Of a stretch of DNA of 64,000 nucleotides, positions 39,253 to 48,224 are shown piece by piece. Position numbers and translations under genes: made by a program. The notes under the pieces are model-generated. The model was not told the DNA's origin and did no database searches. It worked only from the letters and a program-made list of their open reading frames with translations. Origin of the DNA: Oleispira sp. (lineage in GTDB: Bacteria > Pseudomonadota > Gammaproteobacteria > Pseudomonadales > Oceanobacteraceae); contig JAESQF010000085.1 in NCBI GenBank assembly GCA_016765295.1, forward strand, positions 1 through 64,000, given 5' to 3'. Numbering within the stretch: position 1 is the stretch's first letter; the number at the start of each line of letters is the position of its first letter.

Positions 39253-40311
39253 ATGCTTGTTCGCATAATGAAGTACCTAAGTATTGCTCTTTTTAGCATG
39301 AATTTTGTATGGGCAGTAGGGCCAGATGATTCCTTTATGGCAGAGCCAGGGCCTACGTTATATACGGGATTTGAACAGTTATTAGATGACGATAAAACAC
39401 TTGTATTAGAGGAACTACTTGATCTTAATGAAAATATAAAACGCATTGCACTTTATCATAATGGCGATCGCCTACATCGATTAATACCCAAGCAAGTACA
39501 TCAAATGATTGAAAATAAGCTTATGGGACGCCTTATTGAAAGTGGGCGCTTCGAAGTTATTCAATGCATAGAGTGTCGTACAACAAAAGTTGAAATGACT
39601 GCTAATGAATTAAAAATCAGTCAGGCGGCAGAAAATAATCAGCAATTAAGAGCCTTGTCTAAGCAAGTAAGGGCCGATGCATTTATGTTTTGGAATGCCT
39701 CTGTTCATGATAATAAATTCACTATTAATTTACGTTTAATTGATGGTGCCAATAATCAATTGGTTTGGTTGAAAGAATACAGTAAACGCACGACCAAAGA
39801 AGCTGAAGACATGGACTTCAGTACGGTTCGATATGAAGTAATTGTCGGTGCTTGGGGAGTAGGAGGCAGTCGAAAAAATACAGTGGGAGGTAGTGATGCT
39901 GAGCTCACAGGGGTTACCGCTTTTGGTTTTCGTCGTAGAGAGAGCATGTCTATTAATGAGCATATTGAATATACCCTAGGTTTGGAATATTTTAGAAATT
40001 ATTCCGATACAGACTTATTTAATTTAAGTGGTTATAACTTAGAGGGTCGTATTATTGCGGGTATTCCGTCACTGGAAGATATTATTAAGACCAATGTTTA
40101 TCTCGGCATAGGGCAATCCTTCTTTAATAATGCCAATAGTTTGATCTTCCGTTTTGGTTTTGAATTTCCATTTTTTACCGACGGGTTTATGAACTTTGGT
40201 GCAATTGTCATGCAGGAAAGTGATGTCAAGTGGAAAGTAAATTCAAGCTATGAAGAAGCTGGAACATTTGGTGGTACTAGTTATGACCTTACCTTAGGCG
40301 TGAGATTTTAG
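39253..40311 (+). CDS. Predicted outer-membrane protein: CsgG/FlgO-like N-terminal domain plus C-terminal beta-barrel
   Basis: Signal peptide; MIENKLMGRLIESGRFEVIQ...VRADAFMFWNASVHDNKFTINLRLIDGANNQLVW; C-terminal alternating aromatic strands ending ...DLTLGVRF; ATG at 39253 with upstream AAAGGA. Confidence 0.65.
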   Translation: MLVRIMKYLSIALFSMNFVWAVGPDDSFMAEPGPTLYTGFEQLLDDDKTLVLEELLDLNENIKRIALYHNGDRLHRLIPKQVHQMIENKLMGRLIESGRFEVIQCIECRTTKVEMTANELKISQAAENNQQLRALSKQVRADAFMFWNASVHDNKFTINLRLIDGANNQLVWLKEYSKRTTKEAEDMDFSTVRYEVIVGAWGVGGSRKNTVGGSDAELTGVTAFGFRRRESMSINEHIEYTLGLEYFRNYSDTDLFNLSGYNLEGRIIAGIPSLEDIIKTNVYLGIGQSFFNNANSLIFRFGFEFPFFTDGFMNFGAIVMQESDVKWKVNSSYEEAGTFGGTSYDLTLGVRF

Positions 40312-40313
40312 GG

Positions 40314-41018
40314 ATGATTATGAAAATAATATTAACGTGCATTAGCATGATTATTCTAAGCGCTTGCACGTTAGAGCGCAGTAACAGAACACTGACACAG
40401 TATGGTGATAGCCAGCCTGACTGGACAATCAGTACAAGTGAAGCAAGTGTCGAAATAACAGATAAACAATTAGCTCAACGAAATGAAATAGCCAAGCTAG
40501 CGAAAAAAAGCCATGGCTTAATGCATATACATAGATTTGGCCCTGGATTTGACGTGCTGATGACGCTCGATGCCGGAGATAGCGATGTTATATTTAGTAT
40601 GAAATTGCCCGGGGGTAATGCCGATAAATTCGTGGAAGATGTATCCACGCTGGAGATCGCAGAAAAAAATAAGCAATTATTAGAAAGTCTTGATGACGAC
40701 AAGGCTGAACTGCATAGCAAAGAACTGGTGCAGCGAAACGAGATGATCGAGCAAAAAAAATTACAACAGTATCAGGCATCCACTCAGCATATTTTCAGTG
40801 CGCAGTCATTGTTCTATAAGAAACAGTACTGGAAATCACTGGATGAAACCAATAAAGCATTAGAGCTAGTCCCCACTTCGGCTCAGGCTTATGCTTTAAA
40901 AGGCAGTATTTATTATAAAATGGGGCTGAATGACGAAGCTAAAGTGAGCTGGCAGCAGGCGCTTGAAATCGATCCTAGTATGGATCAAGTAAAAACTAGC
41001 TTGGCACGGTTGAAATAG
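40314..41018 (+). CDS. Lipoprotein with C-terminal TPR
   Basis: Lipobox ILSAC; FYKKQYWKSLDETNKALELVPTSAQAYALKGSIYYKMGLNDEAKVSWQQALEIDP. Confidence 0.75.
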   Translation: MIMKIILTCISMIILSACTLERSNRTLTQYGDSQPDWTISTSEASVEITDKQLAQRNEIAKLAKKSHGLMHIHRFGPGFDVLMTLDAGDSDVIFSMKLPGGNADKFVEDVSTLEIAEKNKQLLESLDDDKAELHSKELVQRNEMIEQKKLQQYQASTQHIFSAQSLFYKKQYWKSLDETNKALELVPTSAQAYALKGSIYYKMGLNDEAKVSWQQALEIDPSMDQVKTSLARLK

Positions 41019-41027
41019 GAAAGATCA

Positions 41028-42968
41028 ATGAATACTAATAAAGCATCCTATACAAAATATATATTCATATTATTTATTGTTTTTTCATTTAATTCTGCAT
41101 TTACAGAAGAGCAAGGTAAGACATTTGAAGTGCCGGCTAAAAAGGACGAAATCGAAGAGGCGCGTTTTAAAAATGAGCTGGAAGCAAGACTGAATAGAGA
41201 TCTACAAGCCTATCTAGGTAATAATCGTTTTATTATTCATGTAGAAGCCGAGCTAAGGAAAACTCGGACGATTGTAAAAGAAACCGTAGTTTCTTCTCCA
41301 GTGAATATACCTGAAAGACCCGTATTTACCTCGCGTCCACTACCTGCTAAACCGCTGGTGAATAGAGGTCATGAAGTAGAAGAAAGTTTGCCAGGGTTGC
41401 CTACCAGTGATTTGCCTATATTTGAAGATAATAGTGATGAAGTAAACGCCTTAAAAGGTCGTGTTCAAGAATTAGTAAATGAGCGGCAACAAGCGTTAAG
41501 TTATGCGGAGAAATTACGCAAAGAAGCGGAAAAACAGATTAAAAAAATCAGAGAAAAAACTTTGGGTTATCGAAACTCAATAAAAAAATTAACGATAACA
41601 GTGGTGCTAGATAAAAACATTAAAGATCAGCAGGTTGAGTTTATACGCAGCCTTATTACCCGGAAGGCTCGATTAGATGAGCTGCGAGGGGATACGTTAA
41701 AAATAGTCAGAACAGAATTTAAAGGCTTAGCAGAAAGACCAGTTGTAGTAGATTGGTGGCAGCAATATCAAGGCTGGATTATGCTGCTATGTTTTGGCCT
41801 GATGATGTTGCTGCTGTTATTTGCGTTATATTTATTTAATAAGCGGTTAACAGAAAGTTTACGCGAGAATCAGCGTCGCAGTGAAAACTTTGATAATCTT
41901 ACCGTTCCCGCTGCAGTTGAAATGGCCCCATTAAAGAGTAGTGGCCGTGACGATAACGAACGCCGTCGCCAATTGAATGAAATGCGCCAAGAGCTAGTAA
42001 CGATTGGCCTTGGCCAGCCTAAATTATTTCAGCAGCGTATTGCTGAACAATTAACTAACGGCAATAGTCAGAATATCGTTGCCCTCTATGATGTGATGGG
42101 GAAAAGTCTATTTCGCAGCTTGTGCCCCAAAATTTCCAGTGAAGATTTAGACAGTTTAGTTGATCAGGCAGAGAGCCAGCCACTCGATAGTGAACAGAAG
42201 TTTTCTAGTTTGAATAACTTGCGTCAAGAGTTATTAAGGGCGCTAGGGGATGATGATAATGGCAATGAACCTTTTGCTTTTTTAGAAAAACTTAATGATT
42301 CACAAGTGTTATACCTGATAAAAGAAGAAGATACACGAATCAAGGCCTTACTATTGTCTCAGATGCTGTCAAAAAGAGCGGCGAGCATTATTCAACGTTT
42401 AGAAGGCCGTGAGCAATCAGCAGTCGCTTATGAACTTGGTGAATTTGAAACATTACCGGTATCAACCTTTAAAGATGTTGCCGATCGCTTAGCGAAAAAA
42501 TCGCTTAATGTCCCTAGTTTTGAAAATGTATCGGCTAATGGTCTAACCGTTTTGATTAATATGCTAGATACCATGAGCAGCGGTGAAGAAACTCGTTTAT
42601 TAAAAACGTTGAAAGCCGATAAACCCGAAACCTATTATCGTTTACGACAAGTTTATTATACATTTTCTGATCTTATGCGCACACCTGAAAGGGTGATCGC
42701 CAATGAATTGCGCGATATCGACCGATTGACAATGGCGCTTTCACTTTGTGGCGCACCGATAGAATTTAAACGCCATATTCTTGTAGGCTTGCCTACTAAA
42801 CTACGTTCATCGGTTATTTCAGAACTTAAAATCCAAGAAGGCCAGGCAGGGAAGGAGCAGATTGAACAAGCTCGAACCACAGTGGTTAGTAGTATGCGTG
42901 AAGTGTTAAAATCGGGTCGTTTTTCTATGGACGAATTAGTTGATACTAGTGCTAGTAGTGCAAATTAA
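41028..42968 (+). CDS. FliF-like periplasmic/TM segment fused to FliG-like rotor domains
   Basis: N-terminal TM/signal; RLNRDLQAYLGNNRFIIHVEAELRKTRT and IKKLTITVVLDKN...RGDTLKIVRTEF (FliF C-terminal style) then TM WIMLLCFGLMMLLLLFALYLF then FliG-like LRQVYYTFSDLMRTPERVIANELRDIDRLTMALSLCGAPIEFKRHILVGLPTKLRSSVISEL. Confidence 0.8.
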   Translation: MNTNKASYTKYIFILFIVFSFNSAFTEEQGKTFEVPAKKDEIEEARFKNELEARLNRDLQAYLGNNRFIIHVEAELRKTRTIVKETVVSSPVNIPERPVFTSRPLPAKPLVNRGHEVEESLPGLPTSDLPIFEDNSDEVNALKGRVQELVNERQQALSYAEKLRKEAEKQIKKIREKTLGYRNSIKKLTITVVLDKNIKDQQVEFIRSLITRKARLDELRGDTLKIVRTEFKGLAERPVVVDWWQQYQGWIMLLCFGLMMLLLLFALYLFNKRLTESLRENQRRSENFDNLTVPAAVEMAPLKSSGRDDNERRRQLNEMRQELVTIGLGQPKLFQQRIAEQLTNGNSQNIVALYDVMGKSLFRSLCPKISSEDLDSLVDQAESQPLDSEQKFSSLNNLRQELLRALGDDDNGNEPFAFLEKLNDSQVLYLIKEEDTRIKALLLSQMLSKRAASIIQRLEGREQSAVAYELGEFETLPVSTFKDVADRLAKKSLNVPSFENVSANGLTVLINMLDTMSSGEETRLLKTLKADKPETYYRLRQVYYTFSDLMRTPERVIANELRDIDRLTMALSLCGAPIEFKRHILVGLPTKLRSSVISELKIQEGQAGKEQIEQARTTVVSSMREVLKSGRFSMDELVDTSASSAN

Positions 42969-42976
42969 GGAGTGTT

Positions 42977-43780
42977 ATGAATCGTTTTTCTTTTAGTACC
43001 TTAGTCGGTATCAGCGCTGCGGTTAGCTTATTTATTTATGCCATCGTTTCCAGTACAGAAAATTATCTGATGTTTATCAGCGTATCAAGTTTTGCTTTGG
43101 TAGCGGGTAGCACGTTTGCTGCTTCATTAATTAGCTATACCACTCGGGATGTACTGATTGCGATGAAAGCATTAGCAGAAACCTTTTTTCATTCCCCGAC
43201 AAGTCCAAAATACTTACGAGCTCATGTTGAGCGTTTTGTAGAATGGAGCCAGATTTATCGCAGCGGCGGTATCTCTGCTTTAGAAATGTCACTGACCGAA
43301 AAAGAAAAAAAAGATCCCTTTCTTACTCACGGTATGGAGTTGTTAAGCAGCGGTCATAAAAATCACGATATAAGAACCATATTAACCGATGATATGGATG
43401 CTTTCTGGCAACGTATGACGGTGGAATCAAAAGTCTTAAATACCATGGCCGTCTATGCACCGGGCTTTGGCATGGTGGGTACCATTATTGGCTTAGTCAT
43501 TATGCTGGATAATATGAATGGTGATATGGCAGCATTAGGTAAAGGCCTATCTTTAGCACTGATTACTACCTTGTATGGAGTGGTATTAGCCAACCTCATT
43601 TTTAAACCTGCGGCCAATCAAGTAACAGAGAAACAAGAAGCGTTGTATTTTCGTGATCAAATATTGGTTGAGGGTTTTGTACTATTAGCTGAAAAGCGTG
43701 ATGCATTTTTTATCCAAGATCGACTCAATGCTTATCTTAATCCGAGCATGCGTCTGCAACCTGCAGAAGATAGCTTGTAA
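42977..43780 (+). CDS. MotA/PomA-like stator subunit
   Basis: SGGISALE...FLTHGMELLSSGHK, MAVYAPGFGMVGTIIGLVIMLDNM, ALGKGLSLALITTLYGVVLANLIFKPAAN. Confidence 0.92.
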   Translation: MNRFSFSTLVGISAAVSLFIYAIVSSTENYLMFISVSSFALVAGSTFAASLISYTTRDVLIAMKALAETFFHSPTSPKYLRAHVERFVEWSQIYRSGGISALEMSLTEKEKKDPFLTHGMELLSSGHKNHDIRTILTDDMDAFWQRMTVESKVLNTMAVYAPGFGMVGTIIGLVIMLDNMNGDMAALGKGLSLALITTLYGVVLANLIFKPAANQVTEKQEALYFRDQILVEGFVLLAEKRDAFFIQDRLNAYLNPSMRLQPAEDSL

Positions 43781-44460
43781 TGGAGGAATCCGTATCGAGT
43801 AAACACCGAGGTTTACGCCGTCGCCGTCCTAACTTTGATGACTCCTCGAGTTCATGGTTAATAACGTACTCTGATGCCATTACTTTATTACTCGCTTTTT
43901 TCGTTATGATTTTATCCGTATCAGATCTTAATCAAGGCAAGGTCGAAGCATTAAAAGAAGGCTTATCAGAAGCGATGACAGGAGAGGCACCACCAACCCC
44001 TTTTACGGATATTAAAGAGGGGCTGGAGCAGTTAATTGCGAAAAATGGTTTAGAGAACCAAGTATCCGTTACCTTAGATGCGAAGGGGGTGAAAATAGAA
44101 TTTGCCAATGTTGCTTTATATCAATCAGGTTCAGCAGATATCAAGCCAGAAGCTATTTCTACATTAAAAGAAGTGACTCGGGTTATACGAGAAACCAGTC
44201 ATAAGACTCACATGGTCGAAGTGGAGGGGCATACTGATGATGTTCCTATTCATACAGAAAAGTTTCCTTCCAATTGGGAGTTGTCATCAGTACGAGCAAC
44301 CAATGTTGTGAGATATTTATTAGCTCAAGGGATTGAAAAAGAGCGGCTAAAGGCTGTGGGTTATGCGGACAGTCGGCCAAAAGAAAATAGTAAAAACCTA
44401 CCCCTTAATCAACAGCGCCAAAATAATCGACGTATTGTTGTTTTTGTAAAACGATATTAG
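43780..44460 (+). CDS. MotB/PomB-like stator subunit with OmpA-type peptidoglycan-binding domain
   Basis: WLITYSDAITLLLAFFVMILSVSD (plug/TM with Asp), VEGHTDDVPI...NWELSSVRATNVVRYL. Confidence 0.93.
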   Translation: MEESVSSKHRGLRRRRPNFDDSSSSWLITYSDAITLLLAFFVMILSVSDLNQGKVEALKEGLSEAMTGEAPPTPFTDIKEGLEQLIAKNGLENQVSVTLDAKGVKIEFANVALYQSGSADIKPEAISTLKEVTRVIRETSHKTHMVEVEGHTDDVPIHTEKFPSNWELSSVRATNVVRYLLAQGIEKERLKAVGYADSRPKENSKNLPLNQQRQNNRRIVVFVKRY

Positions 44461-44605: not shown

Positions 44606-46507
44606 ATGGAACTCCTTCAAAAAAACGGTCTATATAAGGCCATGTTACTTGCGATGACAACCTCCATGTTAGTAGCATGTGGTTCTGATTCAGATGGCGA
44701 TGATGGTGGCGTGGGTGTTTCAGGCGCACAAGGATCTTCTGGTACTAGTGGTGATGATGGTATAAATGGTGCTGATGGTATAAATGGTGCTGATGGTATA
44801 AACGGCGAAGATGGTCAAAACGGTGCAGATGGTCAAAACGGCGCGCCTTCTAATGCGGGTTTAACGCGCCTAGCCCAAGCACCGATTGGCGCTGAATTTA
44901 CCGGTATGTATCTTAATGGTGATGGTACTTTTTTCATAAACGTTCAGCACCCTTCAACCGATAATACAAGCGAGAATTCACAGGGTCATACTTTCGATAA
45001 GGGGACGGTCGGTGTTGTAACGGGGGCCGATTTTAATAATTTGGGTAAAGTGGCTGCGCTGGATTTAGCCATCACGGATGCCGATAAAGAAGTTGTATCG
45101 ACAGCGGTAGGTAAGTACCAGGTTCTTTTACAGCAAAATGATGTACTGGAAGATGGCTTTACTGCAGGTGATATTGTTAAGAAAGACGGTACAACGTTAG
45201 TTAAAAATTCTAACGACCCAGATTTTAACGGTGTAGTACCTGATGGCAGCGGTGGCTATTACGTTTATACCAATTGGGAAGATCGCACGGGTGGTATGAG
45301 CCGTATTCAAATATCTGGTTTAGGCCCTGATGGCTACAGCCTGATTAAAAAAGAAGGCATGCTGGACTTCTCTTCCGTTGATGGCACATGGGTAAATTGT
45401 TTTGGTACGGTAACTCCATGGGGAACACCTATTTCAGCGGAAGAGTTGTATTACGATAATAGCGCTGACTGGTTTGATCCAACGTATAAGTACTTTGGTA
45501 ATGCCGTTGCCGTTGCGCAATACATGGGATACCCAGAAGACCAATCAGGTAATTGGGGAAATCCATATAACTATGGTTACAACGTAGAAGTAGGCACAGA
45601 TGGCACCGTTACTGAGGAGAATGTTGCTAATGTTGAAATAGAAAAACGTTTTGCCTTAGGTCGTTTCTCTCATGAAAATGCGGTAGTTATGCCCGATAAA
45701 CGCACAGTTTTCCAAAGTGATGATGGCAGCAATACTGTTTTCTTCAAATTTGTCGCAGATGTCGAGAGTGACTTGAGTGCGGGTACTTTGTACGCTGCTA
45801 AAGCGACTCAGGCGAGTAATACTTCGACCACTGCAGAAGCTGCATTTGGAATTGAATGGGTCATGTTAGGGGCAGGTAATGATGCTCAAATTGAAGCGTG
45901 GATTGATTCTTACGATGGTACTTTTGCAGAAGCAAAACATATCACCGATCAGCAGATCAACGATTGGGCAGAAGCTAAGCTTGGCAAAGATTTGGATGGC
46001 GTAAACGGTATCGCTGCTAGTCCATTCATGGATGATCGCCCAGCTTTTTTAGAAACACGAAAAGCCGCAAAAGCTTTGGGAGCCACTGCTGAATTTAATA
46101 AAATGGAAGGCGTAAACATTAATTATGACCTAGCTGAAACTTGGTGGAATGGTGGTGATGCTGATGGTGTGCAGGCCTATTCCTATATGGCGATGTCAAC
46201 GATCGGTGGTGGTATGACGGATGATGACGGCGCCATTCAAATTAATACGGCTCATGGTAGTTGTGGTGCTGTTTACCGTATGAAGCTAATTAAAAATGCT
46301 GCGGGTTTAGTTGATGTAAAAACGATGATTCCTGCAATCATTGGCGGTCCATACTTTGCTGATCGCGCGGTTAATGAGTGTGATGTTACCAATATATCAA
46401 ACCCAGATAACCTAGTTATCCTGAACGATGGTCGTGTATTAATTGGTGAAGATTCAGGCAACCATGAAAATAATATGGTGTGGGTATTTGATGATCCTGC
46501 GATCTGA
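44606..46507 (+). CDS. PhoX-like (DUF839) lipoprotein with collagen-like Gly-X-Y stretch
   Basis: Lipobox LVAC; GXY repeats; NCFGTVTPWGTPISAEE, GRFSHENAVVMPDKRTVFQSDDG, NPDNLVILNDGRVLIGED. Confidence 0.8.
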   Translation: MELLQKNGLYKAMLLAMTTSMLVACGSDSDGDDGGVGVSGAQGSSGTSGDDGINGADGINGADGINGEDGQNGADGQNGAPSNAGLTRLAQAPIGAEFTGMYLNGDGTFFINVQHPSTDNTSENSQGHTFDKGTVGVVTGADFNNLGKVAALDLAITDADKEVVSTAVGKYQVLLQQNDVLEDGFTAGDIVKKDGTTLVKNSNDPDFNGVVPDGSGGYYVYTNWEDRTGGMSRIQISGLGPDGYSLIKKEGMLDFSSVDGTWVNCFGTVTPWGTPISAEELYYDNSADWFDPTYKYFGNAVAVAQYMGYPEDQSGNWGNPYNYGYNVEVGTDGTVTEENVANVEIEKRFALGRFSHENAVVMPDKRTVFQSDDGSNTVFFKFVADVESDLSAGTLYAAKATQASNTSTTAEAAFGIEWVMLGAGNDAQIEAWIDSYDGTFAEAKHITDQQINDWAEAKLGKDLDGVNGIAASPFMDDRPAFLETRKAAKALGATAEFNKMEGVNINYDLAETWWNGGDADGVQAYSYMAMSTIGGGMTDDDGAIQINTAHGSCGAVYRMKLIKNAAGLVDVKTMIPAIIGGPYFADRAVNECDVTNISNPDNLVILNDGRVLIGEDSGNHENNMVWVFDDPAI

Positions 46508-46583: not shown

Positions 46584-48224
46584 ATGAAAGAGCTTGTATG
46601 CATATTGGTTCTGGCTGTCTTTATGGTTGGTTGTTCCGATACAGAAAGCGCTGAAAGTATTACATCTGATTACGAGTACTTATTTCCTTTAGAGGTGAAT
46701 AAGACTTCGAATAAAGAGGCTGTGATTCCTCCTCAGTGTTATACCAAGCATGAAGGTAAGTATAATCCCTGCATGGTATGCCATCAAAGCTATACCTTCG
46801 GTTCTCGTCCTAATGCCATGTCTGATGGCAACCTGCAAACAGCTTATGACTTTTCTGATTATGGTTTCAAGAATCATTGGCAAAATTTATTCGAAGATAG
46901 AACAAGTAGAATTAAAAAAATTAGTGATTTAAAAGTTAATAAATATATTTCAGAAGATAATTACACTCCCCTGATTGAAGATTTAAAAGCATCTGCCTGG
47001 GATGGAGTTATTCCTGAAATTGAGAATCTTCAAAAGGGTGCGCTAGCATTTGATGAATATGGATTCGCCATTGATGGCAGTCAGTGGGTCGCATTTAATT
47101 ACAAACCAATGCCTAGTACTTTCTGGCCGACTAATGGTTCAACAGATGATGTGATGATTAGATTGCCGATTGAATTTCGTATCAGTAGCTGCATAAATAT
47201 GTCAGAAAATAAGGATGTTTATATTGCGAATCTTGGTTTGTTAGAATTAGCAATTCAAGGGAAAGATGCTGTATCGATTCCTAATGTTGATGAAAGAAAT
47301 ATTTGTGATGATATTAATGGCGATGGTGAAATTACGAATAATGTTAGTCGCATCATTAAGCGGAAAAGTTATTTTGGTAATGCTGGCAATGTTGTAGTGC
47401 GAGATATGCTTTATCCACAAGGGACAGAGTTTTTACATTCAGTTCGATATGTTGGGGTGGATTCATACGGTGCCATTTACATTCCAGAGAGAATGAAAGA
47501 GCTGCGCTATATGGTCAAAACGAATGATTTTGATCAGTTATCGTTAAGCTCAATGTATGGTAACGAACAGCAAGAAAAAATTGATGGAAACCTTCCAACT
47601 TACAATTATAAAAAAACAGGTTCAGCCAATGAGTTTGGTTGGAAGCTGCTGGGTTTCATTGAAGATCATCAGGGGAGGTTACGTTTACAGAATCGAGAGG
47701 AGACAATGTTCTGTATGGGATGTCACAAAACGATTGGTACAACAATTGATCAAACATTTTCATTTCCAAGAAAAGTCTCTGGGGTCAATGGCTGGGGCTA
47801 TATTAATTTGAAGGGAATGATTGATGCACCTAATATTATCGGATCTACAGGCGGTGAAATTTTGAACTATCTCAAGGCAGTCGGGGGAGGTGATGAGTTT
47901 AGGCAGAATGATGAAATGATATCGCGCTGGTTCTCTACCGATGGAGAGGTTTTGGAAGATAAGGTCAATATGGCCGATGTGTATGAGTTGATTACTCCAA
48001 GCCCTGAAAGAGCATTGAAATTGAATAAGGCCTATTGGACGATCGTGTTAGATCAAGATTTCAATCACGGTCGTGATGCGAATATAACACCTGCTCGCAA
48101 TGTCTATAAAAGTATCGATGAGAATAGCCCAATATTAGCCGATAAACTTAGTAGGAAATATGATATCCGCTTACGCTGGGAAGAAGACGAGAAGGTTTTA
48201 ACCGATGACAGTGCTGGGCTATAG
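46584..48224 (+). CDS. Lipoprotein with two c-type heme motifs (CMVCH, CMGCH)
   Basis: Lipobox MVGC; two CxxCH motifs. Confidence 0.75.
   Translation: MKELVCILVLAVFMVGCSDTESAESITSDYEYLFPLEVNKTSNKEAVIPPQCYTKHEGKYNPCMVCHQSYTFGSRPNAMSDGNLQTAYDFSDYGFKNHWQNLFEDRTSRIKKISDLKVNKYISEDNYTPLIEDLKASAWDGVIPEIENLQKGALAFDEYGFAIDGSQWVAFNYKPMPSTFWPTNGSTDDVMIRLPIEFRISSCINMSENKDVYIANLGLLELAIQGKDAVSIPNVDERNICDDINGDGEITNNVSRIIKRKSYFGNAGNVVVRDMLYPQGTEFLHSVRYVGVDSYGAIYIPERMKELRYMVKTNDFDQLSLSSMYGNEQQEKIDGNLPTYNYKKTGSANEFGWKLLGFIEDHQGRLRLQNREETMFCMGCHKTIGTTIDQTFSFPRKVSGVNGWGYINLKGMIDAPNIIGSTGGEILNYLKAVGGGDEFRQNDEMISRWFSTDGEVLEDKVNMADVYELITPSPERALKLNKAYWTIVLDQDFNHGRDANITPARNVYKSIDENSPILADKLSRKYDIRLRWEEDEKVLTDDSAGL

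What the first reader, a model, noticed from the sequence alone, without database searches (positions are those of the whole stretch)
39253..44460. Candidate non-flagellar rotary motor: OM protein, TPR lipoprotein, FliF-FliG fusion, MotA-like and MotB-like in one operon
Seen: five same-strand ORFs with gaps of 2-9 bp or a 1-bp overlap. In order they encode a signal-peptide protein with a CsgG/FlgO-like domain and a barrel-like C-terminus ending in F, a TPR lipoprotein, a FliF-like/TM/FliG-like single chain, a MotA-like protein and a MotB-like protein with an OmpA peptidoglycan-binding domain. Known: in flagella MotAB stators drive FliG, which is carried on the FliF MS ring. Inference: this set holds a rotor base, a stator and envelope-spanning partners but no export gate, rod, hook or filament genes in the window. 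It could be a minimal ion-driven motor doing envelope work, such as gliding-like motility, surface-structure rotation, transport or mechanosensing. I do not know of a described system with this exact composition.
Basis: partly seen in the sequence, partly recalled or inferred. Interest (0 to 1): 0.95.

Follow-up and report, generated by a model that had tools for sequence, protein, structure and literature searches.

The report
Flagellar-type motor module without a flagellum
Some gammaproteobacteria carry a conserved five-gene set with the torque parts of the flagellar motor (a rotor fused into one chain, plus its ion-driven stator) and two outer-membrane partners, and it occurs even in a genome with no detected flagellar export or switch genes, so it is probably a rotary machine used for something other than swimming.

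Summary
Five tightly packed genes encode a CsgG/LpoB-like outer-membrane barrel protein, a TPR lipoprotein, a single-chain FliF(C-terminal)-TM-FliG fusion, a PomA-type MotA and a MotB. Profile searches and structure matching confirm each part except the barrel protein, which rests on its predicted fold alone. The same five genes are contiguous in 22 genomes of four gammaproteobacterial families. They sit in two different gene orders, and no other nearby gene is shared by all four families. The fusion's FliG part forms one fully supported clade apart from flagellar FliG. One carrier genome with the full set lacks FlhA, FliM, any other FliG and a flagellar-type stator; a second flagella-free genome carries a partial set. 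Most other carriers also have flagellar genes. Stator hallmarks are kept: the three Na+-binding threonines, the rotor-contacting arginine and the MotB aspartate. The FliM-binding EHPQ motif is replaced. Best reading: a separate, probably Na+-driven, switchless rotary motor working between inner and outer membrane. Rotation and output are inferred, not shown. The nearest precedent I found is the Chlamydia FliF-FliG chain, which has no described stator or outer-membrane partner.

The parts
39253..40311 (+). Outer-membrane protein: signal peptide, CsgG/LpoB/FlgO-like periplasmic domain with an invariant CxEC motif, then a C-terminal beta-barrel of about 8 strands ending in RF
   Evidence: weak FlgT_M/FlgO/LpoB; 21 homologues; model matches LpoB 4q6l, GNA1162, PelBC and OmpA/NspA/OmpW barrels
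40314..41018 (+). TPR lipoprotein (lipobox LSAC, +2 residue T, so probably outer membrane)
   Evidence: TPR_1 3.5e-10; homologue in every cassette
41028..42968 (+). FliF-FliG single chain: signal peptide, FliF RBM3/beta-collar (about residues 32-231), one transmembrane helix (within 243-290), weak FliG_N-like helices (305-410), FliG_M (425-495), FliG_C (527-633)
   Evidence: (FliG 3hjl 3.5e-30, FliF 6scn 1.3e-12)
42977..43780 (+). MotA/PomA-type stator subunit; PomA R88, E96, T158, T185 and T186 equivalents are R95, E103, T169, T197 and T198
   Evidence: PomA 8bri 2.3e-30; tree; residues; PMC10374538
43780..44460 (+). MotB-type stator subunit: TM helix with the ion-binding Asp (ITYSD), short linker, OmpA peptidoglycan-binding domain
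   Evidence: (closest NCBIfam model MotD 2.5e-54)

Best explanation
The five genes encode a complete, flagellum-independent, ion-driven rotary motor. The MotB-like protein holds MotA on peptidoglycan. MotA, probably powered by Na+, turns a ring of the FliF-FliG chain in the inner membrane through its FliG C-terminal domain. The FliF beta-collar of that ring turns in the periplasm and works on an outer-membrane assembly made of the barrel protein and the TPR lipoprotein. There is no FliM-type switch and no exported axle, so the output is envelope work in one direction: moving or gating an outer-membrane complex, or surface movement. Shown: the homologies, domain order, synteny, separate FliG clade and occurrence without detected flagellar genes. 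Inferred: ring formation, rotation, Na+ coupling, lack of switching and the output.
For: FliG and FliF regions of the fusion match solved FliG and FliF by sequence and predicted fold. The stator groups with flagellar MotA/PomA, not ExbB/TolQ, though with weak support. In 21/21 cassettes the Na+-site threonines T158/T185/T186 and stator R88 are kept, and E96 is E or D in 19/21; these residues are needed for Na+ selectivity and rotor contact in PomAB (PMC10374538). The MotB Asp is invariant in the 13 aligned. The five genes are the only families shared across four families, in two gene orders. Genome G785 (93% complete) has the full cassette but no FlhA, FliM or other FliG, and only one further MotA/ExbB protein; its cassette contig matches its genome by tetranucleotides. 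The EHPQ FliM site of FliG_M is replaced in all 22 chains.
Against: No experiment. PomA D114 and R232 are lost in all 21 stators, and FliG D288/D289 are only partly kept and lost in one family, so the torque interface is altered. Most carriers have flagella too, so cross-talk is possible. Only one flagella-free genome carries all five genes, and it is a 93%-complete draft. FliG_N similarity is weak. Nothing identifies a part linking the FliF collar to the outer membrane. The fusion model has low pTM (0.30).
Confidence: 0.6

Rival explanations
1. An accessory of the ordinary polar flagellum: an extra stator and outer-membrane ring set (like MotX/Y, FlgT/O/P) that boosts or stabilises the flagellar motor, with the fusion joining or nucleating the flagellar rotor.
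For: All tested carriers in families f1 and f7, and three of four in f176, encode FlhA. The stator resembles PomAB/MotCD and the barrel protein has a FlgT/FlgO-like domain. G1125 has FlhA and FliM but its only FliG_C hit is in the cassette.
Against: G785 has the whole cassette with no FlhA, FliM or second FliG, and G859 has part of it with none of these. In the window genome and the one-contig relative G005 the cassette is far from the flagellar genes. It brings its own rotor, and flagellated relatives in the same genera lack it.
Confidence: 0.14
2. A non-rotating force transducer like TolQRA or ExbBD-TonB: MotAB turns locally and moves the fused chain to pull on the outer-membrane protein or TPR lipoprotein for envelope integrity or transport, without a full ring rotor.
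For: No export, rod or axle genes. Two outer-membrane partners and a peptidoglycan-binding stator. Two families add a Sel1-repeat protein, with a Pfam-detected SPOR domain in the f176 member tested.
Against: The chain keeps the FliF ring-building motif and beta-collar and the FliG M and C domains rather than a Tol/Ton-like lever. MotA groups with flagellar stators, weakly.
Confidence: 0.18
3. A degenerate relic of a second flagellar system that has lost its export and axial genes.
For: All parts of the inner-membrane motor have flagellar homologues.
Against: Strong purifying selection on all five genes, the same five-gene content in four families, dedicated non-flagellar outer-membrane partners, and a FliG clade outside the sampled Aquifex, Thermotoga and gammaproteobacterial FliGs.
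Confidence: 0.03
4. An anti-phage defence system of the Zorya kind, using a MotAB-like stator.
For: PADLOC ZorB models hit the MotB-like protein (1.3e-20), as they would any MotB; ZorA models hit the MotA weakly.
Against: No nuclease or helicase partner among the shared genes. The MotA is only 267 aa and lacks the long ZorA tail. The cassette sits at a conserved chromosomal site near fumA in most of the family rather than in a variable island.
Confidence: 0.03

Closest known systems
Flagellar motor (FliF MS ring, FliG, PomA/PomB or MotA/MotB)
   Same: Same torque pair (MotA against FliG_C), FliF RBM3/beta-collar, MotB OmpA domain, Na+-site threonines
   Different: FliF RBM1/RBM2 absent; FliF and FliG are one chain; EHPQ FliM-binding motif replaced; no export gate, rod, hook, filament, FliM or FliN in the cassette; separate FliG clade
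Chlamydiaceae FliF-FliG fusion (Bergeron 2016, PMC4768692)
   Same: A natural FliF-FliG chain outside a flagellum
   Different: As described, the Chlamydia chain is about 330 aa with an RBM2-like FliF part and only a FliG_M-like region, alongside FliL and FlhA; no dedicated stator or outer-membrane partners reported. Here it is the RBM3/collar part plus FliG_M and FliG_C, in an operon with MotAB
Other MotAB-type ion motors: AglRQS, GldLM, ExbBD-TonB, TolQR, ZorAB
   Same: Ion-driven A/B stator doing non-swimming work
   Different: None of these is known to me to use a FliF/FliG rotor; the cassette stator groups with flagellar stators, weakly
FlgO/FlgP/FlgT and MotX/MotY outer rings of Vibrio-type motors; LpoB, CsgG, PelC ring-domain family
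   Same: The barrel protein's periplasmic domain has this fold
   Different: Here it is fused to an 8-stranded-type barrel, and sequence similarity to known members is below cut-off
Hat-like inner-membrane structure related to the flagellar T3SS (PMC9380563)
   Same: A proposed flagellum-related but non-flagellar structure; only its title and the start of its abstract were seen here
   Different: It is tied to flagellar T3SS (export) proteins, which are absent from this cassette

Membership tests
Flagellar rotor (FliF/FliG) | FliG middle and C-terminal domains | tested here: met
   Pfam over cut-off; 3hjl 3.5e-30; fold match
Flagellar rotor (FliF/FliG) | FliG N-terminal domain | tested here: inconclusive
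   Pfam FliG_N hit weak and placed on the M region; hhalign of the N region alone prob 5.8, E 0.0065
Flagellar rotor (FliF/FliG) | Full FliF with RBM1-RBM2-RBM3 and two TM helices | tested here: not met
   Only YscJ_FliF_C found; match starts at FliF residue 233; N-terminus looks like a signal peptide in most homologues
Flagellar rotor (FliF/FliG) | FliM-binding EHPQ motif in FliG_M | tested here: not met
   Replaced in all 22 cassette chains (E followed by varied residues), present in all 7 flagellar FliGs
Flagellar gene cluster | Export gate (FlhA) and switch (FliM) linked to the rotor genes | tested here: not met
   The window genome's FlhA and FliM are on contigs C13 and C20, the cassette on C110; none among shared neighbours
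Flagellar-type stator (FIT class, PMC12505986) | MotA core and position near flagellar MotA rather than ExbB/TolQ | tested here: met
   PomA 2.3e-30; tree groups it with flagellar stators, weakly supported
Sodium-driven stator | PomA T158, T185, T186 (conserved in all Na+ stators per PMC10374538) | tested here: met
   21/21 cassettes
Sodium-driven stator | Measured Na+ dependence | not testable with these tools
   needs physiology
Torque-generating stator-rotor pair | Charged contacts PomA R88/E96/D114 and FliG R281/D288/D289 | tested here: inconclusive
   R88 21/21, E96 E/D in 19/21, D114 0/21; FliG R281 is K/R in all but G859, D289 acidic in f1 and most others, lost in f176
Zorya defence | ZorA with long tail plus ZorC/D or ZorE effectors | tested here: not met
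   MotA is 267 aa; no such shared gene
Chlamydia-type FliF-FliG fusion | RBM2-only FliF plus FliG_M, with FlhA in the genome | tested here: not met
   RBM3 plus FliG_M and FliG_C; occurs without FlhA

The most novel reading that the evidence does not exclude
A previously undescribed class of self-contained rotary motor. The flagellar torque pair (FliG and MotAB) works in its own right on a fused FliF-FliG ring coupled to a dedicated outer-membrane ring, without type III export. Its FliG lineage branches outside the sampled flagellar FliGs from Aquifex, Thermotoga and gammaproteobacteria, so it could be a very old offshoot of the flagellar rotor.
Probability: 0.45. Interest if true: 0.97.

Novelty: new variant of a known kind. 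Interest (0 to 1): 0.9.

Why it matters
[quoted passage not shown] This cassette gives a concrete, compact and conserved candidate: rotor, stator and outer-membrane partners in one five-gene operon. Close homologues are in one-contig genomes, one of which (4,406,383 bp) is, from memory, the size of Oleispira antarctica RB-8, a culturable strain. If it rotates, it would show that the FliG-MotAB torque generator works outside flagella, bear on how the flagellar motor was assembled in evolution, and add a new ion-driven machine to the Gram-negative envelope.

Tried and rejected
Literature searches for an existing description found only the Chlamydia fusion and engineered FliF-FliG fusions; bioRxiv is not held. 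Plasmid search found only ordinary FliG. Defence-system scan: only generic MotB/MotA hits. PDB sequence search with the barrel protein: nothing. Main-text search of two proteomics papers on related alkane degraders named no cassette-like motor protein (supplements not available). Promoter-like sites were no more common than in shuffles and no convincing operon-end terminator on the + strand was found. The downstream PhoX-like and haem-protein genes were considered as extra components and rejected: they vary even within the family, and PhoX evolves faster. MAG contamination as the source of the flagella-free cases was considered; composition argues against it.

Full report
What was checked. Pfam confirms the FliF_C, FliG_M, FliG_C, MotA, MotB_plug, OmpA and TPR domains. 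The first protein has only weak FlgT_M, FlgO and LpoB hits. Its model from a 21-member alignment matches LpoB (4q6l), GNA1162 and PelBC for the periplasmic half, and OmpA, NspA and OmpW barrels for the C-terminal half.

The fusion. A profile of 22 chains matches solved FliG structures over the M and C domains (3hjl, 3.5e-30) and Salmonella FliF from residue 233 to its C-terminus (6scn, 1.3e-12). The AlphaFold model has moderate local confidence (pLDDT 76, pTM 0.30), so only local folds were used. It shows a FliF RBM3 domain with interrupted collar strands, one long helix that includes the transmembrane segment, then a helical FliG-like region. Foldseek finds full-length FliG, then FliF RBM3/collar. 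FliF RBM1 and RBM2 are missing. A FliG_N equivalent is plausible but weak.

Conservation and gene content. The fusion was found in 14 of 24 genomes of the window's family, in 2 of 23 genomes of a second family in the order, and in further families of the class, including 4 of 13 genomes of one other order. It was absent from every other genome of a 399-genome phylum sample. Reading the neighbourhoods gives 22 full cassettes. Eighteen run OMP-TPR-FliFG-MotA-MotB and four run MotA-MotB-OMP-TPR-FliFG. All-against-all comparison of the flanks of representative loci shows that these five families, and no others, are shared by all four families. Nonsynonymous change is far below synonymous change, which is near saturation, in all five genes. 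One relative (G013) has an in-frame TAG in the fusion.

Relation to flagella. The window genome has its own flagellar FliG, FliM and FlhA on contigs C13 and C20, away from the cassette on C110. G785 (93% complete) carries the full cassette but no FlhA, no FliM and no second FliG, and just one other MotA/ExbB protein. G859 (98% complete), also without these genes, carries a partial, divergent set: the TPR lipoprotein, a FliF-type chain without FliG, a FliF-FliG chain and a Sel1-repeat protein, with no cassette-type stator found. In tetranucleotide make-up both cassette contigs match other contigs of their own genome (0.88 for G785, 0.91-0.94 for G859) and not other carriers. In the tree the cassette FliG parts form one clade (100/100) opposite flagellar FliGs from Aquifex, Thermotoga and gammaproteobacteria. 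The branch is long and the tree unrooted, so great age is possible but not shown.

Mechanism. The stator is closest to PomA in the PDB (2.3e-30) and to flagellar rather than ExbB/TolQ proteins in the tree, with weak support. PomA's three Na+-coordinating threonines, R88 and (19/21) the E96 acid are kept; D114 and R232 are not. The MotB ion-binding Asp is invariant in the aligned set. On the FliG side the R281 position is K or R in all but G859, the D288/D289 pair is partly lost, and the EHPQ FliM motif is gone. I read this as a working torque generator with retuned contacts and no FliM switch. The functions of the PomA residues come from PMC10374538; the roles of the FliG residues and of EHPQ are general flagellar knowledge. 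That the ring turns, and that the turning is passed to the TPR lipoprotein and barrel protein, is inference. In f176 and f218 a Sel1-repeat gene (SPOR domain detected by Pfam in the f176 member tested) lies next to the set, which hints at a peptidoglycan-related site of action.

Novelty. I found no description of this gene set. The nearest precedent is the Chlamydia FliF-FliG chain (PMC4768692), which differs in FliF part and FliG extent and has no described stator. A recent survey explicitly leaves open what rotor proteins do in species without filaments (PMC12199754). A preprint describing this set cannot be excluded because preprints are not in the library.

Limits. No experiment, no multimer prediction. 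Genome sampling covered Pseudomonadota only, and within it subsets. Only one flagella-free genome has the full set, and it is a fragmented draft. Names of most genomes are hidden; the three named relatives are uncultured Oleispira/Thalassolituus assemblies.

Noticed in passing
window 44606-46507 and 46584-48224: Directly downstream lie a PhoX-like lipoprotein with a collagen-like GXX repeat and a protein with two CxxCH haem motifs; they are variable within the family and not part of the cassette.
   Followed up: partly
L066:4011-5558, L060:12974-14545, L061:6331-7827: A Sel1-repeat protein (SPOR domain detected in L066) lies next to the cassette in two distant families and may be a sixth, peptidoglycan-binding component.
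   Followed up: partly
L061:2660-6334: G859 has two tandem FliF-type chains, one without and one with FliG, and no cassette-type MotAB or barrel protein nearby.
   Followed up: partly
window 39253-40311 (residues C106, C109 of the TTG-started ORF): An invariant CxEC motif in the barrel protein's periplasmic domain in all 21 homologues; it could be a disulfide or metal site.
   Followed up: no
genome G1125 (L066): A 99%-complete genome with FlhA and FliM whose only FliG_C hit is the cassette fusion; either a missing flagellar fliG or a possible double use of the cassette rotor.
   Followed up: no
G000 contigs C13 and C20: FlhA and FliM occur twice with nearly identical scores, suggesting a strain mixture or assembly duplication in the window's draft genome.
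   Followed up: no
L035 (G013) fusion gene: An in-frame TAG interrupts the fusion in one relative; pseudogene or sequencing error.
   Followed up: no
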